Assembly: GCF_003044185.1 (NCBI RefSeq)
Contig: NZ_PYYB01000001.1
Location: 2,500,978-2,564,977 of the forward strand
Source: Paraconexibacter algicola
GTDB lineage: Bacteria; Actinomycetota; Thermoleophilia; Solirubrobacterales; Solirubrobacteraceae
Direction of reading: 5' to 3'
DNA: 64,000 nt
Positions 18,516-59,594 of the stretch are shown here, one piece after another; position 1 is the first letter of the stretch; every line of letters starts with the position of its first letter. Under the pieces are notes generated by a model. The model saw nothing but the letters and a program-made list of their open reading frames with translations, was not told where the DNA came from and did no database searches. The translations under genes were made by a program, and so were the position numbers.

Positions 18516-18532
18516 TCCTACGTCGCGTAGTA
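18516..18532. promoter_or_regulatory. Operator O7
   Basis: tcctac-gtcgc-gtagta. Its last base is the A of the ATG at 18532, so a bound repressor would sit on the start of a leaderless message. Confidence 0.8.
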
Positions 18533-41108: not shown

Positions 41109-41126
41109 CTATGACGGCGCACACCA

Positions 41127-41143
41127 TACTACGATGCGTCGTA
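41127..41143. promoter_or_regulatory. Operator O15
   Basis: tactac-gatgc-gtcgta, one mismatch. It contains TACGAT (41130-41135) for the plus-strand gene, and its left end forms TAGTAT (41131-41126) on the minus strand as a -10 for the riboswitch transcript, so one dyad covers both divergent promoters. Confidence 0.75.
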
Positions 41144-41147
41144 GATC

Positions 41148-42161
41148 ATGCGCCGACACCTCCTGATCCTCGGCCTCTGCGCCGCGACCTTCGCCGGCTG
41201 TGGCGGGAACTCGCCCTCCGACGGGGCGTCCGTCGAGCCGCGCGGACCGTCGTCAGCAGCGCTGCGGGCGAAGCTGGCCGAGGCGACGTCGGTCGACCTC
41301 GCCCGGTTCCCGAAGCCGGGCAAGATGACGCTGGACGAGCTCAGCCAGGCGCTCGACGGGACCGGCCCGCAGGTCGCCCTGGGCACCAGCATCTTCCCGT
41401 CCGCACGCACGCGGCTTGCGTTCGGGCTGATCGACGAGCAGACCGGGTTCGTCTACGCGCCGTCGGTCGTGTATCTGGCCAAGGGCAAGTCCGCGCGGGT
41501 GCTCGGCCCGTTCGCCGCCCCGGCGGACCTCCTCGTCACCGATCCGCCGTTCCGCTCCCGACAGGCGGCCAGCGAGAAGGATCCGTTCGCCGCGATCTAC
41601 GACGCCCGCGTCGACGTCGACGGTCCCGGGACCTACAACGTCCTGGTCGCCAGCGACATCAACGGCAAGCTCATCGGGTCAGGGACGCAGATCAAGGTCG
41701 TCGACGCCAAGGCCGACGCCGTCCCGGACGTCGGAGAGCGGGCCCCGCGCGTGGCGACGGACACGGTGGAGTCCTCCGGCGGCGACCTTGCCGCGATCGA
41801 CACCCGTCTACCGCCCGACGACCAGCACGAAGAGAGCCTCGATGCGGTGCTGGGCAAGAAGCCGGTCGCCATCGTCTTCGCGACCCCGCAGCTCTGCGAG
41901 TCGCGCGTGTGCGGGCCGGTCGTCGACATCGCCGAGCAGCTCAAGGCCACCTACGGCGACCGCATGACCTTCATCCATCAGGAGGTCTACGTCGAGAACG
42001 CGTTCGACAAGGGGCTCCGCGCGCCGCTGAAGGCGTTCAACCTCCCGTCGGAGCCGTGGCTCTTCACAATCGATGCGCGCGGCCGCGTCGCAGAGCGGCT
42101 CGAGGGATCCTTCGGCTTCCGCAGCTTCGAGGCCGCGATCAAAAGGGCACTCGACGCCTGA
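41148..42161 (+). CDS. Thioredoxin-fold lipoprotein with CESRVC motif
   Basis: A 337-residue lipoprotein (lipobox TFAGC). An N-terminal Ig-like/cupredoxin-like half (residues 60-190: FGLIDEQTGFVYAPSVVYLAK, DGPGTYNVLVAS) is followed by a redoxin-like domain with VAIVFATPQLCESRVCGPVVDI (CxxxxC about 249-254) and LPSEPWLFTIDARGRVAERLEG with the cis-Pro. The active Cys are spaced by four residues rather than two, closer to Sco-like copper sites than to thioredoxin. Probable extracytoplasmic redox or copper carrier under O15. Confidence 0.78.
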   Translation: MRRHLLILGLCAATFAGCGGNSPSDGASVEPRGPSSAALRAKLAEATSVDLARFPKPGKMTLDELSQALDGTGPQVALGTSIFPSARTRLAFGLIDEQTGFVYAPSVVYLAKGKSARVLGPFAAPADLLVTDPPFRSRQAASEKDPFAAIYDARVDVDGPGTYNVLVASDINGKLIGSGTQIKVVDAKADAVPDVGERAPRVATDTVESSGGDLAAIDTRLPPDDQHEESLDAVLGKKPVAIVFATPQLCESRVCGPVVDIAEQLKATYGDRMTFIHQEVYVENAFDKGLRAPLKAFNLPSEPWLFTIDARGRVAERLEGSFGFRSFEAAIKRALDA

Positions 42162-42274
42162 CCGGCGCCCGCTTCGATCTCGGGTCCGGCTCGATCGAGC
42201 GGGCGAGATGGATCGAGACCATGTCGCCGCACGGTTAAAAGGTTTCACTCCTGCGGTGAGGCGCTCCGCGAACG

Positions 42275-42291
42275 TACTACGTATCGTAGTA
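42275..42291. promoter_or_regulatory. Operator O16
   Basis: tactac-gtatc-gtagta: perfect arms, extended by cg on each side to a 21-bp dyad. It is the most symmetric copy; GTG 42293 and ATG 42296 follow at once. Confidence 0.85.
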
Positions 42292-42292
42292 C

Positions 42293-42730
42293 GTGATGTC
42301 GCCTTCGCCGGACGTCCGACTGGTCGCCGTTTTCGGGGCGCTCTCCCTGCTCGCCTTGTGGCACGTCCTCGCCGTTCCGCCGTCGGAGCGTTCTGCCAGG
42401 CGAGATGGGCCGCACGTCGTCGGGGACGCCGGGCCTCCGGTGCGCGTCAAGCGGCCCGGTTTGATTCGGGTACGGGACTTCCGACCTGTCGGCGGCATCC
42501 GACGAATCCGTGTACTCCAAGGTGACCGTGTCGAGCTGCGTGTTCGGAGCGACCGCACGGAGGCGGCGCATCTCGACGGCTACGACCTTCGAACGAGGCT
42601 CAGCCCGGGGCGCGCCACCCGTCTCAGCTTCGACGCGGAGCGACGTGGGAGTTTCGCGCTGGAGCTGGAGGGCTCCGCCGAGCAGCTCGCCGAACTCCGG
42701 GTCGAAACACGGCCGGGGCCACGGCGCTGA
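42293..42730 (+). CDS. Membrane-anchored cupredoxin-like protein (copy 1)
   Basis: A 145-residue protein (GTG 42293 or ATG 42296) with one N-terminal helix and a beta-rich domain: GDRVELRVRSDRTEAAHLDGYDLRTRLSPGRATRLSFDAERRGSFALELEG, split here into its motifs VRSD, HLDGYD and FALELE. It parallels the 48800-49258 protein, where the motif is HLHGYD. The layout is a cupredoxin fold lacking the classical Cys ligand, so copper binding would be through His, or structural only. CtaG-like gene follows after 12 bases. Confidence 0.65.
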   Translation: MMSPSPDVRLVAVFGALSLLALWHVLAVPPSERSARRDGPHVVGDAGPPVRVKRPGLIRVRDFRPVGGIRRIRVLQGDRVELRVRSDRTEAAHLDGYDLRTRLSPGRATRLSFDAERRGSFALELEGSAEQLAELRVETRPGPRR

Positions 42731-42742
42731 GGTACTCGGACG

Positions 42743-43366
42743 GTGACGATCGACGCAAGATCCAGCGGTATGTGGGCTGCGCTCCTCGCCGGACTCATGG
42801 TCGGCTTGACCCCGATGACGACGTCAGTGGCTCCCCATGTGCTGCAGCACGTCGTTCTGATGTTCTTCGTCCCGCCGATCCTGGTCCGCGTGGTCCCTGG
42901 CCTCGCGGGAGGTCGACAGCTCGGGGTCGGCGCGGGCGTCGCGCTGGTCCTTGTCGGGATTCTGGCGATCTACGCGCTGCACGCGCCGCCGTCGTTCGAG
43001 CTCGACCTTCGCAACGCCGGCGCGGGACTCGCAGTCCACAGCGGCTTGATCGCGGCAGGACTCGTCCTGGTCCTGCCGGTCACCGGCACCTGGTCGGTGC
43101 GAGGGATGGCTGCCGTAGGGCTCGTCGCCCTCGCGGAACTCGGCGTGGGGGCGCTCGGAATGTGGCTCGCCTGGATCCCGAAGCTCGTGTACGACGTCCC
43201 AGGCGACGACCGGGCTTTTGGTCTCGACCCGCAGTCAGACCAGGCAGCCGCCGGAGCGATCATCCTGGTTGTCGCCGAACCGCTGCTGGCCGTCGAAGTC
43301 GCGAAGCTGTTCTTTCGAGCGCTGCGGGAAGGGGAGGCCGAAGACCTCGCCTCGGATTCGAGTTGA
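42743..43366 (+). CDS. Divergent CtaG-like membrane protein
   Basis: A 207-residue, six-helix protein. TTSVAPHVLQHVVLMFFVPPILV (about 27-48) matches the H-x3-H...P core of CtaG_Caa3, and MWLAWIPKLVYDVPGDDRAFGLDPQSDQAAAGAI resembles the last CtaG loop with the D-Q-A-G-AI motif. It is shorter than ctaG at 39066-39890 by about two helices. A copper-delivery or cytochrome-assembly role alongside the cupredoxin-like protein is inferred. Confidence 0.7.
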   Translation: MTIDARSSGMWAALLAGLMVGLTPMTTSVAPHVLQHVVLMFFVPPILVRVVPGLAGGRQLGVGAGVALVLVGILAIYALHAPPSFELDLRNAGAGLAVHSGLIAAGLVLVLPVTGTWSVRGMAAVGLVALAELGVGALGMWLAWIPKLVYDVPGDDRAFGLDPQSDQAAAGAIILVVAEPLLAVEVAKLFFRALREGEAEDLASDSS

Positions 43367-43605
43367 TCGATGACCCGCCGGCTAGACTTGGGCGAGGTCG
43401 GATCGGCGGGGGCTCGGCTGCAGGCTGCCGTTTGATATCAGCCGTCTTCTGGGGCGGTTGTGAACGTGGGCTTGGTGTTCGAGGAACCGATTCGCGGGTC
43501 CCGGGACACGATCCGTGAATTGCTTGAGATGTTTTGCGCAACGGTGATCCTCAGGCTGCCGGCTGTGGGACGCGTGAGGCCTGCTGCATCTGACAGCGTG
43601 TGCCA

Positions 43606-43998
43606 TCAGCTCTTGGGCTTCTTGCCTGCGAGGCGACGAAGCTCGCGGCGCCGCTCCGGGTCCAGCTGCTGGATCGACCGCGCGAAGTGGACCAGGACCT
43701 TATCGCCGTACTCGTCGATCAGATCGGCGACCTCGCCGGCTGCGCGCCGCTCGTGGTAGTCGGCTCGTGAAAGCGCGGCCGTGTAGTGGTCGGTCTTGCC
43801 GGAGCGGCGGCGAACGAGCAGGTCCTTTTCCGCGAGACGGCTCATGACGGTCATGACGGTCGTGTACGCGCGCGTCTTCTCCGCACGGGCGTTCAGCCCG
43901 TCGAGGACCTCACGAACGGTGGACTCACCGCGAGACCAGACCTCAGACATCACCTCGCGCTCGAGCTCGTGCAGTTCGGGTAGTCGCTCCTGTGGCAC
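43606..43998 (-). CDS. BlaI/MecI/CopY-family repressor (BlaI-2)
   Basis: A 130-residue protein: LHELEREVMSEVWSRGESTVREVL and RAYTTVMTVMSRLAEKDLLVRRRSGKT form the BlaI winged helix. GTG 43998 stands 6 bases after a TAGACT -10 box (44010-44005), a leaderless start. Operator O17 lies 28 bases upstream in the spacer shared with the divergent 12-TM gene, consistent with autoregulation. Its nearest M56 protease is at 46520-47380. It is the best candidate binder for the TACTAC-type operators. Confidence 0.9.
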   Translation of the reverse strand: MPQERLPELHELEREVMSEVWSRGESTVREVLDGLNARAEKTRAYTTVMTVMSRLAEKDLLVRRRSGKTDHYTAALSRADYHERRAAGEVADLIDEYGDKVLVHFARSIQQLDPERRRELRRLAGKKPKS

Positions 43999-44026
43999 GC
44001 GCGCAGTCTACCGCGGAGCCCGCGAG

Positions 44027-44043
44027 CACTACGCAGCGTAGTA
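44027..44043. promoter_or_regulatory. Operator O17
   Basis: cactac-gcagc-gtagta. The -10 TAGTAT (44039-44044) overlaps its right arm, 6 bases before GTG 44051; BlaI-2 diverges on the other side. Confidence 0.82.
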
Positions 44044-44050
44044 TTGGCGG

Positions 44051-45490
44051 GTGTCTGTCGCCTCTTCCCTGCGGGTCCCCGTTCTCCTCGCGGCCGCGCT
44101 GGTGCTGACGCTGGTGCTGCCCGCTTCAGCGGCCGCCCATGGTCTGGTGATTCGTGCGGACCTCCCGATCCCCGAGTGGCTGTTCGGGTTCGGTGCGGCG
44201 GCGGTCGTGATCGTCACGTTCGTCCTGCTCGCGGTCGCCTGGAAGGAGCCGCGACTAGAGGAGCCCGAGACACGCTGGCTGCCCGATGCCGTCGGTCGCC
44301 TCGTCACGAGCCGGAGCCTCGAGGTACTCGCCGGTTCCGTCGGCGTCGTCGCTCTCGGTGGGGTGATCTGGGCCGGGTACACCGGGACCGAGTCGCCGAA
44401 CGCCAACCTCGCTCCGACGCTCGTCTACATCCTCTTCTGGCTGGGGTTCGTCCCCCTGAGCATCGTGCTCGGCGACGTCTTTCGCCTCTTCAACCCGTGG
44501 CGGGCGCTCGGCCGGGCCGTCGGCGGGATGCTCGCCCGCTTCGAGATGCCGGAGCCGCTTGCGTACCCGGCGCGCCTCGGCAACTGGCCCGCCGCGGCGG
44601 GACTGCTCGCGTTCGCATGGCTCGAGCTCGTGGCCACCGACGGCGACCTGCCGGTCAACGTGGCCACCGCGACGTGCATCTACACCGTGGTCCAGTTCGT
44701 CGGGATGTCGTTGTTCGGCGTGCAGAGGTGGTGCGAGCAGGCCGAGGCGTTCGGCGTCTACTTCAACCTGCTGTCACGCATCTCGCCTTGGACCCGCGAC
44801 GACCGGCGTATCGGTCTGCGCCCCCCGCTGGCCGGGCTCGCCGCGGTCGAGGTACGTGCCGGGACGGTCGCGTTGCTGGCGGTCATCATCGGCTCGACCT
44901 CGTTCGACGGCTTCAGCGGCGGCGCGACGTGGCAGGACTGGACCCGGACCCTGCTCGACCTCTTCGGGGGTCTCGGGCTCAGCGCCCGCTACGAGCTGGA
45001 ACTGGCCTACGCCGTCGGCCTCGCCGGTGCCGTGCTCCTCGTCGGCGGGTTCTTCCTCCTGGGCGCGGCGCTGACCCGGCGCGCCGCCGGGGATCCACGC
45101 AGTGTCAAGGAGACCGCACGCCGCTTCATCCACGGTCTCGTGCCGATCGGGGCGGCGTATGTCGCTGCGCACTACGTCACCCTCCTCCTGCTTCAAGGGC
45201 AGTCACTTGCCTACCTGCTGAGCGATCCGCGGGGCGACGGGTCCGACCTCCTCGGGACCGCGGACTGGACCATCGACTACGGCTGGCTCAGTCCGGAGCT
45301 CATCTGGTATCTGCAGGTCGGCGCCGTCATCCTCGGGCATGCGGCGGCACTCGCCGTCGCGCACGACCGCGCCCTGGTGCTCTACGGCGACGGCCGTCGG
45401 GCGACGCGCTCTCAGGTGGGGATGCTCGTCGTGATGGTCGGCTTCACCGTCCTCGCGCTCTGGTTGCTCTCGGAAGCCGCGAAGGGCTGA
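44051..45490 (+). CDS. 12-TM membrane protein of unknown function (copy 1)
   Basis: A 479-residue protein with about 12 helices and a short N-terminal signal ending ASAAAHG. It is a paralogue of the 47400-48803 protein: both begin AAAHGLV...DLP.P.WLF, share LVYILFW-type, LGDVFRLFNPWR and STSFDGFSGG motifs, and end with GHAAALAVAHDRAL (H-x7-H in a helix). Those His and the mature N-terminal His suggest heme or copper binding. I recall such proteins being labelled fenitrothion hydrolase in databases but see no hydrolase motif. A 57-residue gene follows. Confidence 0.75.
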   Translation: MSVASSLRVPVLLAAALVLTLVLPASAAAHGLVIRADLPIPEWLFGFGAAAVVIVTFVLLAVAWKEPRLEEPETRWLPDAVGRLVTSRSLEVLAGSVGVVALGGVIWAGYTGTESPNANLAPTLVYILFWLGFVPLSIVLGDVFRLFNPWRALGRAVGGMLARFEMPEPLAYPARLGNWPAAAGLLAFAWLELVATDGDLPVNVATATCIYTVVQFVGMSLFGVQRWCEQAEAFGVYFNLLSRISPWTRDDRRIGLRPPLAGLAAVEVRAGTVALLAVIIGSTSFDGFSGGATWQDWTRTLLDLFGGLGLSARYELELAYAVGLAGAVLLVGGFFLLGAALTRRAAGDPRSVKETARRFIHGLVPIGAAYVAAHYVTLLLLQGQSLAYLLSDPRGDGSDLLGTADWTIDYGWLSPELIWYLQVGAVILGHAAALAVAHDRALVLYGDGRRATRSQVGMLVVMVGFTVLALWLLSEAAKG

Positions 45491-45497
45491 CGCGCTC

Positions 45498-45671
45498 ATG
45501 TTCGTTCTCGCGCATGCCGGCGACTGGCTGCTCTCCATGATCTACATGGCCCCGGTCGTGATCCTCGTAGGCGCACTGCTCGTCGCGCGCCGGCGTGACC
45601 CCGGCGACGAGTTGCGGGAGTGGGAGGACGAGGACGAAGACCTGCTGGACCTCGGCGACGATCAGCCCTGA
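45498..45671 (+). CDS. 57-residue single-helix protein with acidic tail
   Basis: ATG 45498, 7 bases after the 12-TM gene stop, encodes MFVLAHAGDWLLSMIYMAPV, continues through one membrane helix, ARRRD, and a tail rich in Glu/Asp (EWEDEDEDLLDLGDDQ). The His-Ala-Gly start, the helix, the positive-inside ARRR and the acidic tail are coherent, and the base composition is that of coding DNA. Probable small partner subunit of the 12-TM protein. It overlaps the convergent CPBP gene by 10 bases. Confidence 0.65.
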   Translation: MFVLAHAGDWLLSMIYMAPVVILVGALLVARRRDPGDELREWEDEDEDLLDLGDDQP

Positions 45672-46486
45672 GCGCCGGTCAGGAGCGGGCGCTCCTCATC
45701 GCGGCCCGGGGCCCTGGCCCCGCGCGTCGTAAGGAGGTAGACGGCCAGCAACATGGCCGCGCCGAGGGGGAGACCGACCGCTCCCGGGTTGTCGAGGTCC
45801 GTCGCCGAGCTGAAGGCCAGGGCGTTGTTCAGGACGTGCAGCGCGATCGGTGCGGCGAGCGAGCCCGTCCGCTCGTACAGCACGCACATCAGCGCCCCGA
45901 GGAATGCGAGAAGCGGGATGAGCGGAAGGACGTCCGGATCCCCGAGGTGAACCGCACCGAACAGCACGCCGACGAAGAGCGCGGCTCCAGCAGGTCCCAG
46001 TCCGTTGCGGGCGGCGCGATAGACGAAGCCGCGGAAGAAGAACTCCTCGACGACCGGAGCGATCACGACGACCATCACCGCCGCGGCGATCAGGCCGGCC
46101 CCTCCGCGGTCGGCGCCGAGCCGCTCGAGCGTGTCCTGGCTGCCGCCGTCGCTGACGACGAGGCTGTACAGCCAGCTGACGCCATAGAACATCATGGCTG
46201 CGATCACGACGGCGCCGACGAGCCGGCCGCGGGTGATACGCACGAGACCGAAGTCCGCCGGCCGCGGGGCGGGATGCCGGAGTGACACCGCGAGGGCGAG
46301 CGGGACGACGATGAGGAGCACGTCCTGCCAGAGCGTGGCGAGCAGCGCACCGTTCGCCGAGAGCTCGCGTCCCGGCTCCCCCGCGCCGGTGGCCACGACG
46401 ACGATCGCGCCCCCGGCGCCCGCGAGAGCAAAGGTCGCAAAGGGTGCGATCACGCACCACCAGGGGGGCCACGAGTCCCGGTTCAC
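45662..46486 (-). CDS. CPBP-family intramembrane metalloprotease
   Basis: A 274-residue protein with eight or so helices. VVEEFFFRGFVYRAARN (about 143-159) is the EExxxR motif, FVGVLFGAVHLGD supplies the second-motif His and APIALHVLNNALAF the HxxxN of CPBP (Rce1-like/abortive infection) proteases. GTG 46486 stands 7 bases after a TACGCT box, under O18. It could process peptides or regulated membrane proteins such as anti-sigma factors. Confidence 0.88.
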   Translation of the reverse strand: MNRDSWPPWWCVIAPFATFALAGAGGAIVVVATGAGEPGRELSANGALLATLWQDVLLIVVPLALAVSLRHPAPRPADFGLVRITRGRLVGAVVIAAMMFYGVSWLYSLVVSDGGSQDTLERLGADRGGAGLIAAAVMVVVIAPVVEEFFFRGFVYRAARNGLGPAGAALFVGVLFGAVHLGDPDVLPLIPLLAFLGALMCVLYERTGSLAAPIALHVLNNALAFSSATDLDNPGAVGLPLGAAMLLAVYLLTTRGARAPGRDEERPLLTGAQG

Positions 46487-46500
46487 CGGGTCCAGCGTAC

Positions 46501-46517
46501 TACTACGGGGGATAGGA
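46501..46517. promoter_or_regulatory. Operator O18
   Basis: tactac-ggggg-atagga, one mismatch. It fills the short gap between the end of the M56 gene (46520) and the CPBP start, giving the CPBP gene its own control. Confidence 0.7.
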
Positions 46518-46519
46518 GA

Positions 46520-47380
46520 TCAGCTGGTGGCCGGTCGTGCCCTTCGTGGACGAGGCCACAGAGCGACGACGGCGATGGCGCCGGCGATGCCGGCGATGAC
46601 GGTCGGATGAAGGTGGCCGTCGCAGCCCACGCCGGGCGCACAGGTCGTGCTCGACGTGATGAGGATCGAGGCGGCGATGAGGCTCGCGACCGCCACGGCG
46701 ATCGCGGGGATCTCCGTCGCCGGCAGGACGCGGCGGTCGCGCCCGAGCAGCCCGTCGACACGGGCCGCGTGAATGCCGCCGTCGGGCCAGGTCTCGCCCT
46801 CGAGCAGAGCCCCGGCGAGCGCCTGCGGGCTCGCGGTGAGCAACGCCGCCCGGTCGGCCGCGAGCTCGCGGCGGATCTCGCAGGCATCGGCCAGACGCCG
46901 GGCGCTGCCGAGGTCGAAGCCCTCGGCCAGCGCCCGAGCGAGCATCGCGCGGGCCGGGTCGCGCCGCCGCGCGTGGTGGCGCTCGTGCTCGAGCACTGCG
47001 ACCAGTTCCTGCGGAGAGAGGGCCTGCACGGTCCCGGTCGAGAGGAGGACGGTCGGGCGGAGGACCCCGACGCAGCCGACCACTTGGCGCGGGTCGTCGA
47101 TGAGACGGACAGAATGGCCTCCGACGACCTGCGCCCGGGACCCGCGTTCTACGGCTCGCCGCAGCGCTCGGGTCTCGAGCGCGCAGCGGATGAGTTCCCG
47201 GCCGGTGCGAATCAGGACCACGCCGCCTGCGGTGGCGAGCCCGGCGGCAAGGATGCGCACCGCCGTCGAGGGGTGATGGAACGCGACCGCGTCCAACGCG
47301 AAGGCCACGGCCGCGCAGAACGACGCGAGCAGGACGACCGCGGCGACGCCGGGACCAAGGAGGACGCGCGATCCACGCAC
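46520..47380 (-). CDS. M56-family membrane zinc protease (second BlaR1-like)
   Basis: A 286-residue protein with N-terminal helices, VAVLEHERHHARRRDPARAML (HExxH form HERHH, about 130-134), CEIRRELAADRAAL with the downstream Glu/Asp, and two C-terminal helices flanking TTCAPGVGCDGHLHP, an extracytoplasmic loop with two Cys and two His that might bind metal. No penicillin-binding sensor is present. It follows the second 12-TM gene by 19 bases. Probable protease for BlaI-2. Confidence 0.87.
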   Translation of the reverse strand: MRGSRVLLGPGVAAVVLLASFCAAVAFALDAVAFHHPSTAVRILAAGLATAGGVVLIRTGRELIRCALETRALRRAVERGSRAQVVGGHSVRLIDDPRQVVGCVGVLRPTVLLSTGTVQALSPQELVAVLEHERHHARRRDPARAMLARALAEGFDLGSARRLADACEIRRELAADRAALLTASPQALAGALLEGETWPDGGIHAARVDGLLGRDRRVLPATEIPAIAVAVASLIAASILITSSTTCAPGVGCDGHLHPTVIAGIAGAIAVVALWPRPRRARPATS

Positions 47381-47399
47381 CTCACGAACTCTACGCGGT

Positions 47400-48803
47400 C
47401 TACGTGCCGATCGCCGACAGCAGCCAGAGACCGAGGCAGGTGTATCCGACCATCACCGCCAGCATCCAGTACTGGGAGCGCACGGCATCCCGATGGTTGC
47501 GGAAGACGGCGAGAGAGCGGTCGTGGGCGAGGACCAGACCGGCGACGTGCCCGACGACGAGCGCGCCGACCTGGACGTACCAGATGACCGAGGTCGAGAC
47601 CGCGGTCAGGTCGACGCCGGCATCGGCGGTGCCGAAGAGATCGGAGCCCGTGGCGAAGGGGTCGGAGATCATGAAGCCGAGCGCCTGGCCCTGGAACACG
47701 ACCAGGCTGAAGTAGTGCGCCAGGACGTACGCCAGCGCGATCGGCACGAGGGAGTGCGCGAAGCGCTCGGCCAGCTTCGCTCGGTCGACGCCCGGTCGCA
47801 TCGTCGCCATCCCCGAGATCGCGAGCCGGTACAGCACGAGGATCAGCGCGATGCAGAAGGCGATCCCGAGCGTGTCCACGATCGCTCGCGTTGTCGCTTC
47901 CCCGAGCCCGAGATCGCTCATCCACGACACGACGTCCGGCGCGAAGCTCGTCCACAGACCGCCCTGCGACGCTCCGTCGAAGCTCGTCGTCCCGATCATC
48001 GCCGCAAGCACGGCGAGCGTTCCCCGAGGAGTCGCGGCGGCCGCGAGCCCGACCAGGGGAGGGCGGATCCCGAGGCGCCCGTCCCGCCAATGGACAGGGG
48101 CCATGGAACCGATGAGCGAGAAGGCCACTGCGAAGCCGTCGGCCCTCCTGGTCCATGGCTCGACCCCGTACCGGCGCATCCCCCAGAGCTGCGTCACGAA
48201 GTACCCGAGTGCGAGGAGCGCTACGACACGCGGCTCGTCGCCGAATGGTGCGGCCAGCTCGATCCAGGCGAACACCACGACGGTCGCGGCAGCCGGGTAG
48301 CGGCCGACCTTCGCGGGGTACGCGCGCGCCGTGCCGGATTCGTCGAAACGCAGCGCCCGGGCGACGGTGCGCCAGGGATTGAACGCGTTGAAGACGTCAC
48401 CCAGAAGGAGCGAGATCAGGGGAATCCCGACCCAGAACACGACGTAGACGAACGTCGGCGCCAGATTGCGCGTCGGATCCTGCTCGCCGAACACTCCGGC
48501 CGCGACGACCACCACGAACGTCAGGACGCCCACGGCCCCCGCGGCGTTCCTCAGCCAGCGAGGGGCACGATCCTCCGTCGTCTCCGTCGACCGGTCCCGT
48601 TCGAGACGAGGCTCGTTCCATCCGACCGACAGACCGATGAACGAGACGACCAAGACGACGGCCGCCGTCCACGCGAAGAGCCACTGGGGCACCGGCAGGT
48701 CGAGCCGACCCACGAGACCGTGCGCAGCGGCCGAGCCAGGAAGCAGCAGGAGCGCGGTGCAGAAGAGCACCGCGGTCGCGATGACACGGCGCCGTCGTGT
48801 CAC
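47400..48803 (-). CDS. 12-TM membrane protein of unknown function (copy 2)
   Basis: A 467-residue paralogue of the 44051-45490 protein: AAAHGLVGRLDLPVPQWLFAW, LVYVVFWVGIP-type helix, LGDVFNAFNPWRTVARA, TTSFDGASQGGLW, and VGHVAGLVLAHDRSL with the H-x7-H pair. It overlaps the cupredoxin-like gene by 4 bases (GTGA), so both are made together, and is followed by the M56 protease. The pairing with a cupredoxin-like protein supports a role in metal or redox handling. Confidence 0.75.
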   Translation of the reverse strand: MTRRRRVIATAVLFCTALLLLPGSAAAHGLVGRLDLPVPQWLFAWTAAVVLVVSFIGLSVGWNEPRLERDRSTETTEDRAPRWLRNAAGAVGVLTFVVVVAAGVFGEQDPTRNLAPTFVYVVFWVGIPLISLLLGDVFNAFNPWRTVARALRFDESGTARAYPAKVGRYPAAATVVVFAWIELAAPFGDEPRVVALLALGYFVTQLWGMRRYGVEPWTRRADGFAVAFSLIGSMAPVHWRDGRLGIRPPLVGLAAAATPRGTLAVLAAMIGTTSFDGASQGGLWTSFAPDVVSWMSDLGLGEATTRAIVDTLGIAFCIALILVLYRLAISGMATMRPGVDRAKLAERFAHSLVPIALAYVLAHYFSLVVFQGQALGFMISDPFATGSDLFGTADAGVDLTAVSTSVIWYVQVGALVVGHVAGLVLAHDRSLAVFRNHRDAVRSQYWMLAVMVGYTCLGLWLLSAIGT

Positions 48804-49258
48804 GGGTCCACGCGCAGCTCAGCGATCGGCACGGCCGAGTTCTCGAGCTCGAGCTCGAAGATCCCCGTGATCTTCGCCTCGAACGCGAAACGCGCGTCGC
48901 GTCCCGGCCCTACGGGCGTCTCGATGTCGTAGCCGTGCAGGTGGGCGTTCTCGCCGCGGTCGCTTCGGACGACGAAGCGCACGTCTTCCCCCTGCTTCGC
49001 CCTGAGCCTCTGCACACCGCCGACCGGCTCCAGGCCCTTGACCTCGACGATCTCGGGCGCCGGGGTCGGCTCCGGGGTCGCCGCAGGCGCGGCGGTCGCG
49101 CCCGGCGAGCCGTCGGAGGGCGGTTCAGGCGCCGTCGTGACGGCTTGGGTCACGACCGGGGTGGACGTATCTTCGTCAGTGGGCCGAAGCGCGACGAACG
49201 TCGCGGCGAGCGCGATGACAGCAACCAGGATGAGGCTGAGACGTGCGACGCGGGGCAC
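48800..49258 (-). CDS. Membrane-anchored cupredoxin-like protein (copy 2)
   Basis: A 152-residue protein with one N-terminal helix, a Pro/Thr/Ala linker (about 30-70), and a beta domain: VRFVVRSDRGENAHLHGYDI, then FEAKITGIFELELEN. The HLHGYD motif adds a His compared with copy 1. An AAAGGA site precedes GTG 49258 by 7 bases. It heads the operon of the second 12-TM protein and M56 protease under O19. Confidence 0.72.
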   Translation of the reverse strand: MPRVARLSLILVAVIALAATFVALRPTDEDTSTPVVTQAVTTAPEPPSDGSPGATAAPAATPEPTPAPEIVEVKGLEPVGGVQRLRAKQGEDVRFVVRSDRGENAHLHGYDIETPVGPGRDARFAFEAKITGIFELELENSAVPIAELRVDP

Positions 49259-49286
49259 GGGAGGGTCCTTTGCTCAGGAGGCGATG

Positions 49287-49303
49287 TACTACGCAGCGTA
49301 GAA
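49287..49303. promoter_or_regulatory. Operator O19
   Basis: tactac-gcagc-gtagaa, one mismatch; 28 bases upstream of the cupredoxin-like start. It is the last copy seen in the window. Confidence 0.75.
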
Positions 49304-49324
49304 GAACCCGCGCTGCGTTGGCAT

Positions 49325-54243: not shown

Positions 54244-57200
54244 TCACACCGCTGGCGGCTGCGCAGTCGGATCGACCGCAGCCGCCGTCGTGCGATCCGG
54301 GTGCCGCTCGCCGATCGAGACCTCCACTGACTGCGCCTTCATGTCTGGTCTGGCGAGCACCGTGCCGAGCGCTTCGACGACCTGCGGGTCAAACTGGGAG
54401 CCGGCGTGGCGCCGGAGCTCCTCCAGCGCAGCGGCGGGTGTCCGGCGTGGTTGGTGGGGCAGGTCGGTGGTCATCGCCTCGTAGGCGTTACACACCTGGA
54501 TGATCCGGCTGGCGAGTGGGATGCTCGTCCCGACAAGGCCGTCGGGGTACCCGTGGCCGTCCCAGCGCTCGTGAGTGTGTTGCACGATGTTCGCGATCGG
54601 TGCGAGTTCCGGGGACGCGCGGAGGATGTCCGCTCCGGTCCCAGGGTGTCGTGCAATCACCTCGCGTTCGGCCTCGGTGAGCGCACAGCGCTTGCCGAGC
54701 GTTGCGGCAGGGATGACGAGCTTTCCGATGTCGTGCAGGTCGGCGGCGAGAACGAGTTCGTCGAGGCGGGCGGTCTGGCCGAGCTGTCTGGCGACTCGCA
54801 GCGAGAGATCTGTGACGCGGCGCATGCGGTCACCGAGCTCCGGATGCTGATGTTCGAGCGCTCGCAGGAGCAGCGCGGCCGCCTGGCGTCGCGTAGACGA
54901 CGGGAGCGCGTTTTTGCGTTCATACATGCGGCGGTCGGCTACCCGCAGCGCTTCGGTCGGGGTTCGTGCTTCCAGTGGGCACGCGACAAGACCGAAGCTG
55001 GCGCTGACCGCGTGCTCCTCCGTGGTGGTCGAGAGCGCACGCAGCGCCACGAGGGCACGAGGGTCGAGCGAGCTCGGCGTGGCCGTGGCGTCCGCCTGCC
55101 ACAGGACGCAGAACTCGTCGCCGCCCAAGCGGTACACCTTGCCAGTCTGCCCCACGGCGCGGTGAAGGCGACCCGCGAGGGTGCGCAGGAGCTCGTCGCC
55201 TGCGACGTGTCCGTAGGTGTCGTTGAAGCGCTTGAAGCCGTCGAGGTCGAAGATCGCGAGGCCGAACTCGAGGTCCTCCGCCAGCCAGGCGTTCAGGTCG
55301 CGCATCAGGCGTCGGCGGTTGCCGAGCAGGGTCAGCTCGTCGGTAAGCGCAGCGGCTCGGGTCTCGTCAAGCGACCGAGTGTCACGGAACGCTCGTGCGG
55401 TGCGGACGCCGCTCACCATAACGGCGGCCGCGGCGAGGCCCACACTCACCGGGCTGACGTCTTTGATGGTCGCAGCGACGAGACTTACCAGCGCGATGGC
55501 GGTGAAGGCGAGGGGTACTAGCGCGACACGCCACCCGTCCCTCTGCATCGGCGGTGGCTCTCTCGGCGGCAGACAGGCCGCCATGGCCAGACCGGCGAGG
55601 CCAAGTGCCCACAAGCCGTCGAGCACGGTCCCGGGTTGGTAGGTGTCGGTCGTGAGGCGGTAGAGGTAGACGCAGTCGGCAACCGCCAGGAGCGCGAGGC
55701 CGACAGCAATCAGCAACAGGTCTCTGCCAGGCCTCCACCGTGTCGCGGTCGCCGCCGTGACGATGATCGCGAGCAGCGCGAGGTCGCCGATGGGATAGGC
55801 CACGTTGGTGAGGACGACCCCGAGGTCGCCGCCGACGCGATCGAGGATCGGTCCGACCAGGAAGGCGACCGCAACGGAGGACAGGGCCAGGACGCCGAGC
55901 GCCCCGTCGAGCGCGATGTTGAGGTCCGTCTTCTCCCCGCGTCGACGGGTCGCCTCCAGTAGGGCCATGAACGCGAGCGGATAGAGCAGCAGCCAGAAGC
56001 CGTCGGCAGGTGAGGGGAACGGCGGATCGGCGGCGTCTACGAGGACCAGCGTCCAGTAGGCCTGGCCGAAGGCGTAGCACGACAACGCCAACGCAAGCCA
56101 GCGCCAGGCCAGTCGCATGCCGGTCGTCTCGATGCGCACGCGGCGCCACGCGGCAGCTGCTGCCAAGAGGTAAATGGCGACGTAGACAACCTTGTCCCAC
56201 ACGAGGTCTACAGTTCCGTCGCCGGCCGACAGGGTCGCCTGCAGGGTGTAGGCCAGTGCGAGTGCTGCTGTGGCGATAGCGATGACGCCGAGCGGTCGGT
56301 CTCGTCGCCGCGACACGACGACGGCCGACGTCGACCCAGGGGGGTTCATCTCGCGCGGCGGTCGCTGGGACCCGCTGGCAGGATGCCGGCCGGGCAGGGA
56401 AACGCTGATCCTCGTCCCGCCCGTGGCCGGGGACGAGACCTCAAGGGTCCCCCCCGCGGCGTGGACTCGCTCGAGGGCGACGGACATCCCGATGTGTCCC
56501 GAGGCGATTGCATCGGACAGCGCGTCGGGAGACATGCCGATCCCGTCGTCGGAAACGTCAAGGTGTGTGTCGGGACCGACGGAGCGGACGGTGACCTCGA
56601 CCGTCGAGGCGCGCGCGTGTTTGGACGCGTTGACGACGAATTCGCGAGAGAGGGCGTAGATGAGGTCCGCATGGACTCCGACGGCCTCCGGCGCCAGGTC
56701 GATGCGTAGGTCGAATCCGCCGCGTCTTGCCGCGTCAGCGGTCTCCTGGCGAATGGCGTCGGCCACGGTGGCCGGTGTGTGCTGTGGGGTCTCGACGCCT
56801 CGCATCACGCCCCGGAGCTCGACCATCACCCGGTCGAGTGCTCGTTGCGCGTAACCGAGCGCGTGCACGTCTCCGCGAATCGCGTCGGCAAGGTCCTGCC
56901 TGGCCGAGAGCACGGACTGGAGGGTCTCGTCGTGAAGGCGCCGGCGGGCGGTCTCCTGCGCGTCGCGAAGGATCTCGCGCTGAATCCGAAGCGCTCGACG
57001 TTCGCGTTCGAGCCGTCGCCGGTCAAGCGTGGCAACCACTTGATGGGCGACGATCGCAGCCACCGAGAGCGCCAGAAAGACGCGGGCCGTGGGTGCCAGG
57101 GGCTCGAAGATGGACCACGTCAGAAGCCCCAGCAGGACGACCGCGCACAGCGCGGTGACACGGTGCTCGAGCCATACCGAGCCGACCGGCGACGCTTCGG

Positions 57201-57993
57201 GGCTCGGCATCCACGACGCCGCGGCAATCCAGAGGACCGCGAGCGGCCAGGCAAGGTCCACGACCCCGCCCTCTTCGTAGGTATCCCGAGCCACCTGGAC
57301 GAGGAAGGTGACGTCGGCGAGGGTGAGCAGCAGGAAGCTGGCCGACAGGACGAGGTACGGAACGCCGAGCCTGCTGCCCTTGAGGATCGCTCCGCCGGTG
57401 ACCAACGCCAGCAGCACGACGTCAAGTGACGGATAGAGCACGTTGGTGATGAGCTCCGAAGTCGCTACGTCGTCGACCTGCAGCACTCCAGGCGACAGAG
57501 CCACCGCCGCGATCAGCGCGGCGATCGCCAAGGCACCGGCGAGCGCTTCCAGCAGTGTCGTCACGGGCCGGGCAGGAGCGTCCGTGCGCACGAGCAGCAC
57601 GAGCCCGACATAGAGGACCGCGTAGGACGCGAAGAAGAGGAGGTCGGAAGGCGACGGATGCGGCGGCTCGGCGACGCCCGAGAGCAGGACGACGTAGTAG
57701 ATGCTCGCCGCCGCGTACAGGGCGAGGCCAGTCGCGATGAAGCCCCACGCGCGGCGCTGCCGTGGCACCGCGACGGCGCGCCACCCCGTGAGCATGACGG
57801 CGAGGAGGAGGATGGACTCGTAGACCCAGTGGTTCCAGAAGTCTGCGGGTCCGTCGACGAGGCCTGCGATGAACGCCGAGTAGGCGGCGAGCAACGTCCC
57901 CGCCACGACCCAGGCGGCGACGAGCGACCGCCGCTGCCACACGAAAAGGGAACCCACCGCGGTGCGCTGAACCGCTGACCGTTCATCGTTCAC
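54244..57993 (-). CDS. Histidine kinase - GGDEF - HD-GYP fusion with two membrane domains
   Basis: A 1249-residue protein. Order: membrane domain 1 (about 20-320, eight or so helices), NarL-type kinase with TARRRLHDETLQSVL (phospho-His about 350) and ATPase motifs FVVNASKHA and VSDDGIGMS (about 480); membrane domain 2 (about 565-880), homologous in pattern to domain 1 (FPSPADGFWLLLYP against HPSPSDLLFFASYA); GGDEF with RLGGDEFCVLW (about 955); and HD-GYP with AADLHDIGKLVIP (about 1083) and HERWDGHGYPDG (about 1135). GTG 57993 has GAGG 6 bases before it. It could make and degrade c-di-GMP and phosphorylate a response regulator not encoded here. Confidence 0.88.
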   Translation of the reverse strand: MNDERSAVQRTAVGSLFVWQRRSLVAAWVVAGTLLAAYSAFIAGLVDGPADFWNHWVYESILLLAVMLTGWRAVAVPRQRRAWGFIATGLALYAAASIYYVVLLSGVAEPPHPSPSDLLFFASYAVLYVGLVLLVRTDAPARPVTTLLEALAGALAIAALIAAVALSPGVLQVDDVATSELITNVLYPSLDVVLLALVTGGAILKGSRLGVPYLVLSASFLLLTLADVTFLVQVARDTYEEGGVVDLAWPLAVLWIAAASWMPSPEASPVGSVWLEHRVTALCAVVLLGLLTWSIFEPLAPTARVFLALSVAAIVAHQVVATLDRRRLERERRALRIQREILRDAQETARRRLHDETLQSVLSARQDLADAIRGDVHALGYAQRALDRVMVELRGVMRGVETPQHTPATVADAIRQETADAARRGGFDLRIDLAPEAVGVHADLIYALSREFVVNASKHARASTVEVTVRSVGPDTHLDVSDDGIGMSPDALSDAIASGHIGMSVALERVHAAGGTLEVSSPATGGTRISVSLPGRHPASGSQRPPREMNPPGSTSAVVVSRRRDRPLGVIAIATAALALAYTLQATLSAGDGTVDLVWDKVVYVAIYLLAAAAAWRRVRIETTGMRLAWRWLALALSCYAFGQAYWTLVLVDAADPPFPSPADGFWLLLYPLAFMALLEATRRRGEKTDLNIALDGALGVLALSSVAVAFLVGPILDRVGGDLGVVLTNVAYPIGDLALLAIIVTAATATRWRPGRDLLLIAVGLALLAVADCVYLYRLTTDTYQPGTVLDGLWALGLAGLAMAACLPPREPPPMQRDGWRVALVPLAFTAIALVSLVAATIKDVSPVSVGLAAAAVMVSGVRTARAFRDTRSLDETRAAALTDELTLLGNRRRLMRDLNAWLAEDLEFGLAIFDLDGFKRFNDTYGHVAGDELLRTLAGRLHRAVGQTGKVYRLGGDEFCVLWQADATATPSSLDPRALVALRALSTTTEEHAVSASFGLVACPLEARTPTEALRVADRRMYERKNALPSSTRRQAAALLLRALEHQHPELGDRMRRVTDLSLRVARQLGQTARLDELVLAADLHDIGKLVIPAATLGKRCALTEAEREVIARHPGTGADILRASPELAPIANIVQHTHERWDGHGYPDGLVGTSIPLASRIIQVCNAYEAMTTDLPHQPRRTPAAALEELRRHAGSQFDPQVVEALGTVLARPDMKAQSVEVSIGERHPDRTTAAAVDPTAQPPAV

Positions 57994-58403: not shown

Positions 58404-59594
58404 TCAGCAGCGGGCGTCCTGCACTGCCAATCCGCTCGCGTGCGGGTTGGCAAAAGCTCGCTCCATCATCTGTCGTTCCTGCGACCGCGGGGCATAGTCG
58501 GCGTAAATCAGCGTGGTCTTGTAGTCGCGGTGGCCCATCCACTCCTGCAACGTCCGGAGGGGTACGCCGGCCGCCGCGGCCTGTGTCCCAAAGGTGTGTC
58601 GGAGATCGTGGAATCGGATTGCTCGAACTCCTGCGTCGTCGAGCGCTTTCTTGAAGCGCTTGCGGAGCTTGGAGGCGTCGAGGACGGAGCCCAGCTCGGG
58701 GTGGCCGAAGACGAGGTCGTCGTCCTCTCGGTAGCGGGACTGCTGGTGGAGCCGGTCGAGCGCCCCTTCCGTGCGATCGATCATCGGGACCGCCCGGCTG
58801 GAGCGGCGGGATTTCGGGGTGCCCCAGTTCCCGCGTGTGTAGTTGCGCCGAACGCGGATGACGCCGGCGGTCCAGTCGACGTCGCGCCAGCGAAGTGCGA
58901 CGAGTTCGCCCTGGCGCAGACCGCAGGTCGCAGCGACCAAGAAGAGCGGGTAGTCGACCTGCGCGAACTCCGGGTCATCCACTGCCCGGAGGAGCGCTTC
59001 GAGTTCCTCGTGGGTCAGGAATCGGATGTCCGGGTCGGTCACGTCCTCCCGCGGTCGATCGACGGCGGCGACCGGGTTGGCGCTGGCCCAGCCTTTCTTC
59101 ATGGCGTGGCGGAAGACGCCGTGGAGGAACGTGAGCTGGTTGCCGACGGTTTTGCTTGCGAGCCCGTCGAGCTGCTTGGCGACGAGGTAGTCGGCGACGA
59201 GCTGGGTGTCGACGTTCTCAAGCGACCTGCCCTTGAAGAACGGGACGAGATGCTTGCGGAGCATGATCTCGTAGTCCTGGATCGTGGTCGGCTTGCGCTT
59301 CATCACCTGCTCGAGGTGCACGAGGTAGCGCTCACCGGCGACCTGCAGATTGATTCGCTCCGAGACGGGCGTGAGGCGTGCGTAGGCCTCGATGAGCTTC
59401 TGCAGGGCCCGCTCCGCCTCGGCCTTGGTCATTCCGGTCGACTCGCCGGCCCGCCGTTTCAGCCCGAGCTTGCGGCGGATCTGTCGGCCGCCGGCGCGGA
59501 AGCGGCCGTAGTAGACCTCACGCCCGTGCTTGTTGACCCTGGTCTCGAGGGTGCCGACGCCGTACGCGCGACGCGGCTTCTGCTTGGCGCTCAT
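58404..59594 (-). CDS. Tyrosine recombinase (phage/ICE-type integrase)
   Basis: A 396-residue protein. The N-terminal AP2-like arm-binding part (YGVGTLETRVNKHGREVYYGRFRAGG) is followed by a core-binding SAM-like domain, and the catalytic domain has TCGLRQGELVALRW (Arg), FHDLRHTFGTQAAAAG (HxxR about 327-331), WMGHRDYKTTLIYADY (His and Tyr nucleophile about 360). ATG 59594 overlaps the excisionase stop (ATGA). It would act at the tRNA-Met site 400 bases away. Confidence 0.93.
   Translation of the reverse strand: MSAKQKPRRAYGVGTLETRVNKHGREVYYGRFRAGGRQIRRKLGLKRRAGESTGMTKAEAERALQKLIEAYARLTPVSERINLQVAGERYLVHLEQVMKRKPTTIQDYEIMLRKHLVPFFKGRSLENVDTQLVADYLVAKQLDGLASKTVGNQLTFLHGVFRHAMKKGWASANPVAAVDRPREDVTDPDIRFLTHEELEALLRAVDDPEFAQVDYPLFLVAATCGLRQGELVALRWRDVDWTAGVIRVRRNYTRGNWGTPKSRRSSRAVPMIDRTEGALDRLHQQSRYREDDDLVFGHPELGSVLDASKLRKRFKKALDDAGVRAIRFHDLRHTFGTQAAAAGVPLRTLQEWMGHRDYKTTLIYADYAPRSQERQMMERAFANPHASGLAVQDARC

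What the first reader, a model, noticed from the sequence alone, without database searches (positions are those of the whole stretch)
41148..49258. Duplicated 12-TM / cupredoxin-like module with M56 and small partner
Two 12-TM paralogues (44051-45490, 47400-48803) each have an H-x7-H helix and mature N-terminal His; two cupredoxin-like proteins (42293-42730, 48800-49258) share the HL(D/H)GYD motif; CtaG-like, CPBP, M56 and a 57-residue acidic protein accompany them. All are under the dyad. It looks like a copper- or heme-handling complex without a name.
Basis: partly seen in the sequence, partly recalled or inferred. Interest (0 to 1): 0.7.

Follow-up and report, generated by a model that had tools for sequence, protein, structure and literature searches.

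The report
Unnamed cupredoxin–membrane copper-handling pair
Two sets of genes in a soil actinobacterium encode a copper-protein-like membrane-anchored domain and an unnamed ten-helix membrane protein that are kept together in many bacteria next to copper genes, so they are probably an undescribed way of handling copper at the cell membrane for respiratory enzymes.

Summary
The genes are real and at the stated coordinates. The two polytopic paralogues (47% identical) match no Pfam or NCBIfam family and no PDB sequence, and no PDB fold convincingly; the model shows about 10, not 12, membrane helices. The two partners belong to a family with the cupredoxin fold (nearest: CuA domain, EfeO, nitrosocyanin) but lack the blue-copper ligand set. 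Cupredoxin and membrane protein form a conserved pair: in 49 of 77 loci in 396 Actinomycetota genomes the first gene is immediately upstream of the second. Relatives elsewhere lie beside copper genes (copper monooxygenase, CopC, CtaG, DUF305, PCuAC). In this genome all six exact copies of the dyad CTACGNNNCGTAG lie in this window; three precede these genes. Best explanation: a cupredoxin-like receptor outside the membrane passes copper to the membrane protein, for uptake or oxidase assembly, under a BlaI-type repressor probably controlled by an M56 protease. Copper involvement is well supported by context; metal, direction and mechanism are inferred. One further copy sits in a zinc-type cluster, so a broader metal range is possible. 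Corrected: copies A and B are not a local duplication, and a mature N-terminal His is not general (8 of 34 relatives have 5–11-residue leaders).

The parts
41126..41144 (.). weaker dyad ATACTACGATGCGTCGTAG just before 41148
   Evidence: PWM score 23.7; the PWM was made from eight other window sites
41148..42161 (+). thioredoxin-like lipoprotein with CESRVC
   Evidence: no Pfam/NCBIfam hit, so 'thioredoxin-like' is by eye; homologues next to relatives of the membrane protein in L073 and L088
42274..42292 (.). dyad GTACTACGTATCGTAGTAC before cup_A
   Evidence: exact CTACGNNNCGTAG, 1 of 6 in the genome
42293..42730 (+). cup_A, cupredoxin-like protein, HLDGYD variant
   Evidence: missed by the codon-based gene caller, recovered by the family profile at E 1.3e-33 (the profile includes it)
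42743..43366 (+). Caa3_CtaG-family membrane protein
   Evidence: PF09678 E 7.5e-11, 42.3 bits against cut-off 27.7
43606..43998 (-). BlaI/MecI/CopY-family repressor with no cysteine
   Evidence: PF03965 E 4.7e-23; sequence
44026..44044 (.). dyad GCACTACGCAGCGTAGTAT between the repressor and membrane protein A
44051..45490 (+). polytopic membrane protein A (about 10 TM)
   Evidence: no family
45498..45671 (+). 57-aa small membrane protein, AHAGDW variant of AHxGHW
   Evidence: relatives, most of them directly after the membrane-protein gene
45662..46486 (-). CPBP (Rce1-like) membrane protease
   Evidence: PF02517 E 2.7e-21
46520..47380 (-). M56/M48-type metalloprotease (HERHH), no sensor domain found
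   Evidence: PF05569 E 2.6e-6 (under cut-off), PF01435 over cut-off
47400..48803 (-). polytopic membrane protein B
   Evidence: weak sub-threshold CopD match over residues 11-104
48800..49258 (-). cup_B, cupredoxin-like protein, HLHGYD; overlaps the start of membrane protein B by 4 bases
   Evidence: AF2 pLDDT 89.4; Foldseek CuA E 2.4e-5
49286..49304 (.). dyad GTACTACGCAGCGTAGAAG before the cup_B to CPBP gene series

Best explanation
An undescribed two-component membrane module for copper, present twice. The cupredoxin-like protein, anchored by one N-terminal helix outside the cytoplasmic membrane, binds a copper ion with HxHG(Y/F)D and acidic/His residues on a neighbouring strand (E137, E/H139) and hands it to the polytopic protein, whose His374, His430, His438 and Gln455 lie in membrane helices and whose His30 faces outside. 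The ion is taken up or passed on to oxidase assembly (SCO1-like and CtaG neighbours). Here the genes are part of a BlaI-type regulon confined to this region: the repressor at 43606 sits on the dyads and is probably removed by proteolysis (M56), because it has no cysteine with which to sense copper as CopY does. Shown: gene order, conserved pairing, cupredoxin fold of cup (model and profile), the dyads, copper-gene neighbourhoods in relatives from other lineages. Inferred: copper binding, receptor-to-permease transfer, direction, protease signalling, and that this repressor is the one that binds the dyads.
For: Pairing: 49 of 77 loci with cup directly upstream, 53 of 69 genomes have both (Fisher p 2e-46, not corrected for phylogeny). 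Cupredoxin fold: profile match to nitrosocyanin E 3.4e-5 and CuA subunit II about 1e-3; Foldseek CuA 2.4e-5, EfeO 3e-5, a copper-bound B. anthracis Cupredoxin_1 chain 3e-5. Copper neighbours in other lineages: hmoCAB in M. dioxanotrophicus and M. chubuense, CopC, a metal-sensitive regulator, CtaG, DUF305, M56, BlaI and TlpA in M. gallinarum, CopC in M. rufum, PCuAC in Sulfitobacter, a heavy-metal ATPase in Haloarcula, CopC-CopD in L088. H374, H430, H438 and Q455 invariant from bacteria to haloarchaea in 17 sequences. Dyads all in this region, which also holds SCO1, CcmF, CcdA, a second CtaG and metal ATPases. A SigC-type sigma gene lies just upstream of the pair in both hmo-bearing mycobacterial plasmids; SigC supports copper acquisition in M. 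tuberculosis (PMC7924339).
Against: No biochemical data. One copy lies between an ABC-3 metal importer and a CDF/Fur pair (L040) and another near ZIP and Fur (L052), which points to zinc or a wider range. cup lacks the Cys/Met ligands of blue copper sites, and cup_A has lost one His. The genome has genuine CopC and CopD genes elsewhere. The SigC-type gene in M. chubuense has been read as a likely regulator of the neighbouring soluble monooxygenase (PMC8784404). The operator is not seen at the relatives' pairs scanned. In the haloarchaeal and alphaproteobacterial loci read, the membrane protein stands without a recognisable cup. Neighbourhoods were read, not tested against random genes.
Confidence: 0.5

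Rival explanations
1. A general transition-metal (zinc or mixed) module; copper specificity is only local, set by which regulator each copy comes under.
For: Copy in L040 lies with ABC-3 permeases, CDF and Fur; L052 copy with ZIP and Fur. His/Asp/Glu/Gln ligands suit Zn as well as Cu. A cupredoxin-like domain with zinc bound is among the nearest folds (4hcg).
Against: Most informative neighbourhoods elsewhere are copper ones.
Confidence: 0.25
2. A membrane redox protein: bis-His heme b (or quinone) in the polytopic protein, with cup as electron partner, linked to cytochrome assembly.
For: Invariant His in two membrane helices with H-x7-H; the region also holds CcmF, CcdA, DsbA and VKOR.
Against: cup lacks the Cys of electron-transfer copper sites; no similarity to any known heme membrane family found; pairs beside CopC or PCuAC do not need heme.
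Confidence: 0.12
3. Copper resistance: export or periplasmic sequestration under copper stress.
For: Metal P-type ATPases, DUF305 and CopC-type genes are common in resistance clusters.
Against: hmoCAB and SCO1/CtaG neighbours point to copper use; copper export could already be covered by the metal P-type ATPases in the region.
Confidence: 0.13

Closest known systems
CopC-CopD / YcnJ and CtiP (CopD-Caa3_CtaG fusion)
   Same: extracytoplasmic copper-binding domain paired with a polytopic membrane protein, near CtaG/SCO1; proposed copper importer (PMC8424229, PMC9145763)
   Different: membrane protein is not CopD (sub-threshold at one end only, no profile match); partner is cupredoxin-like, not CopC; the genome has CopC and CopD as well
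EfeUOB iron importer (EfeO cupredoxin domain)
   Same: cupredoxin-like receptor with a membrane permease; EfeO among the best fold matches
   Different: no FTR1 or peptidase M75 domain found; different membrane protein
PCuAC / SCO1 copper chaperones for CuA
   Same: periplasmic copper delivery context; PCuAC lies beside a relative in Sulfitobacter
   Different: cup gives no PCuAC Pfam match and carries an N-terminal membrane anchor
YcnI (DUF1775) monohistidine brace
   Same: N-terminal His after a leader as a possible copper ligand in a copper-uptake operon (PMC8424229)
   Different: His30 here starts a polytopic protein, and short-leader relatives argue against a free N-terminus being required
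BlaI/M56 regulons (BlaR1-BlaI, MecR1-MecI)
   Same: BlaI-family repressor plus M56-type protease and a palindromic operator
   Different: M56 protein lacks a sensor domain; targets are copper and cytochrome genes, not beta-lactamase

Membership tests
CopD (PF05425) | score over the curated cut-off | tested here: not met
   16.9 and 21.9 bits against 32.1 for protein B; none for A; hhalign of the family with a CopC-CopD protein E 0.11 over 16 residues
Caa3_CtaG (PF09678), for the polytopic proteins | profile similarity | tested here: not met
   no hit; hhalign with five CtaG proteins E 0.18 over 22 columns
Cupredoxin fold | cupredoxin beta-barrel | tested here: met
   AF2 model pLDDT 89.4; Foldseek CuA, EfeO, nitrosocyanin E about 1e-5 to 1e-4
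Type 1 (blue) copper protein | His, Cys, His and axial Met | tested here: not met
   no conserved Cys or Met in the domain of 27 relatives
CopY copper repressor | C-terminal CxC-type copper/zinc motif; TIGR02698 cut-off | tested here: not met
   no cysteine in the protein; 43.6 bits against 121.95
BlaI/MecI family (PF03965) | domain over the cut-off | tested here: met
   82.2 bits against 22.6
BlaR1-type sensor protease | M56 domain plus extracellular sensor domain | tested here: not met
   286 aa; M56 27.3 bits against 31, no sensor domain found; HERHH present
EfeUOB importer | FTR1 permease and EfeO M75 domain | tested here: not met
   no such Pfam hit in either protein family
Histidine-brace copper protein | free N-terminal His as ligand | tested here: inconclusive
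   AxA-His in most relatives, but 8 of 34 have leaders of 5-11 residues
Known membrane-protein fold for the polytopic protein | confident match to a solved structure | tested here: inconclusive
   Foldseek best E 0.027, none at 0.001 or below; VIA best Z 7.9 with rmsd 9.8 over 161 residues

The most novel reading that the evidence does not exclude
The polytopic protein founds a new family of membrane copper transporters with a fold not seen in solved structures, fed by a cupredoxin-like receptor with a non-blue copper site, and used from Actinomycetota to haloarchaea, including for copper monooxygenases.
Probability: 0.35. Interest if true: 0.78.

Novelty: new variant of a known kind. Interest (0 to 1): 0.58.

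Why it matters
How bacteria bring copper across or into the membrane for oxidases and copper monooxygenases is still poorly known; CopD is the main suspect. A second, unnamed, widely spread candidate with a conserved receptor partner would make the question directly testable, and the region supplies a compact operator-defined set of genes to test with it.

Tried and rejected
A recalled label 'fenitrothion hydrolase' for this family: two paper searches found nothing tying it to these proteins, and no annotated homologue listed bears the name, so it was dropped. CopD and CtaG homology. Local duplication of A and B. A general link to copper monooxygenases: only 3 of 396 genomes have one and one of those has the membrane protein, so the link is seen only on the mycobacterial plasmids. 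Search for the same operator in relatives' loci: no hit above threshold at the pair. Foldseek and VIA found no solved relative of the polytopic protein's fold. Anti-phage library: no hit. One-mismatch genome scan for the dyad was uninformative: the list was cut and the reversed control pattern gave more hits. Paper searches for a description of this module found none.

Full report
What is there. The window lies in a 70% G+C genome of 4.74 Mb; its nearest relatives by this protein family are Solirubrobacterales. All genes named in the finding are present. On the plus strand: a thioredoxin-like lipoprotein (41148), cup_A (42293), CtaG (42743), then a BlaI-family repressor on the minus strand (43606), polytopic protein A (44051) and a 57-residue protein (45498). 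On the minus strand, reading from 49258 down: cup_B, polytopic protein B (overlapping by 4 bases), an M56/M48-type protease and a CPBP protease, with gaps of 19 and 33 bases, so probably one transcript. My codon-based gene caller picks nearly all of these, some with a later start, but not cup_A. cup_A is supported instead by 44% identity to cup_B and by recovery with the family profile at E 1.3e-33 (the profile includes it).

The polytopic family. A and B are 47% identical and the genome holds three more members at other loci. No member tested gives a Pfam or NCBIfam hit over a cut-off, including mycobacterial, proteobacterial and haloarchaeal relatives, and no PDB sequence matches the family profile. 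Foldseek finds no match at E 0.001 or better and VIA's best rows are at Z below 8 with high rmsd; this does not prove a new fold. By the distribution of Lys/Arg His30 and the conserved 392-414 loop face outside. Residues H374, H430, H438 and Q455 are invariant in 17 sequences from Actinomycetota to haloarchaea. I could not read model coordinates, so clustering of these residues is not shown.

The cupredoxin-like partner. In this family HxHG(Y/F)D and E137, with E or H at 139, are conserved; Cys and Met are not. The profile matches nitrosocyanin (E 3.4e-5) and the CuA domain (about 1e-3) in the PDB, and the cup_B model matches CuA, EfeO and a copper- or zinc-bound B. anthracis cupredoxin. So the fold is cupredoxin but the site is not a blue-copper site. 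cup_A reads HLDGYD.

A conserved module. In 396 Actinomycetota genomes, 49 of 77 loci of the polytopic gene have cup directly upstream on the same strand; 53 of 69 genomes with it have cup as well, against 4 of 327 without it (relatedness not corrected for). In Thermoleophilia a small membrane protein with AHxGHW often follows (17 relatives found; the window copy reads AHAGDW), and an unnamed protein with HELRY often precedes (11 relatives). The pair is not a local duplication: A and B sit in different supported clades (SH-aLRT 95 and 96, quick search).

Company kept elsewhere. hmoCAB copper monooxygenase in two mycobacterial plasmids; CopC, metal-sensitive regulator, oxidase subunit III, CtaG, TlpA, DUF305, M56, BlaI and M23 in M. 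gallinarum, which is close to the gene set of this window; CopC in M. rufum; PCuAC in Sulfitobacter; a metal ATPase in Haloarcula; CopC-CopD in L088 and CcdA/TlpA/CtaG-type genes in L060, L085, L094. Against copper alone: the L040 copy lies with two ABC-3 permeases, CDF and Fur, and L052 with ZIP and Fur. These neighbourhoods were picked by reading loci, not by a counted test against random genes.

Regulation. CTACGNNNCGTAG occurs exactly six times in the genome, all in this window: before cup_A, between the repressor and A, before cup_B, and at 18518, 32123 and 32184. Weaker forms precede 41148 and others. The repressor has no cysteine, so it cannot sense copper as CopY does; proteolysis by an M56 protein is the likely route, as in BlaI/MecI systems. 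That this repressor rather than the second one (12700) binds the dyads is inferred.

N-terminal His. In A and B and most relatives His30 follows AxA, as a signal peptidase site would leave it; but 8 of 34 relatives have leaders of 5-11 residues, some with starts overlapping the cup stop codon, so a histidine brace is possible but not general. Start codons were not verified experimentally.

Judgement. Copper handling is likely; receptor-to-membrane transfer is the simplest mechanism; direction and metal range are open. CtaG co-occurrence is moderate (54 of 70 against 143 of 326) and one family has the pair without CtaG, so a caa3-only role is unlikely.

Noticed in passing
window 11609-49304: Nine weaker dyads besides the six exact ones mark a copper and cytochrome c maturation region: CcmF, CcdA, SCO1, TlpA, VKOR, DsbA, two CtaG, metal P-type ATPases, DUF305, two BlaI-type repressors.
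   Followed up: partly
window 58404-59594: Tyrosine integrase (PF00589) downstream of the region, which could mean it is an integrated element.
   Followed up: no
L069 2482-2952: AHLGHW small membrane peptide fused to a weak STAS-like domain.
   Followed up: partly
L041 8218-8796: Unnamed HELRY membrane protein upstream of cup in many Thermoleophilia, relatives often ending near AGRAPP; no Pfam hit.
   Followed up: partly
L040 7928-9331: Copy of the polytopic gene in the same genome inside a zinc-type ABC-3/CDF/Fur neighbourhood.
   Followed up: partly
window 54244-57942: 1232-aa protein with histidine kinase-type ATPase, GGDEF and HD domains.
   Followed up: no
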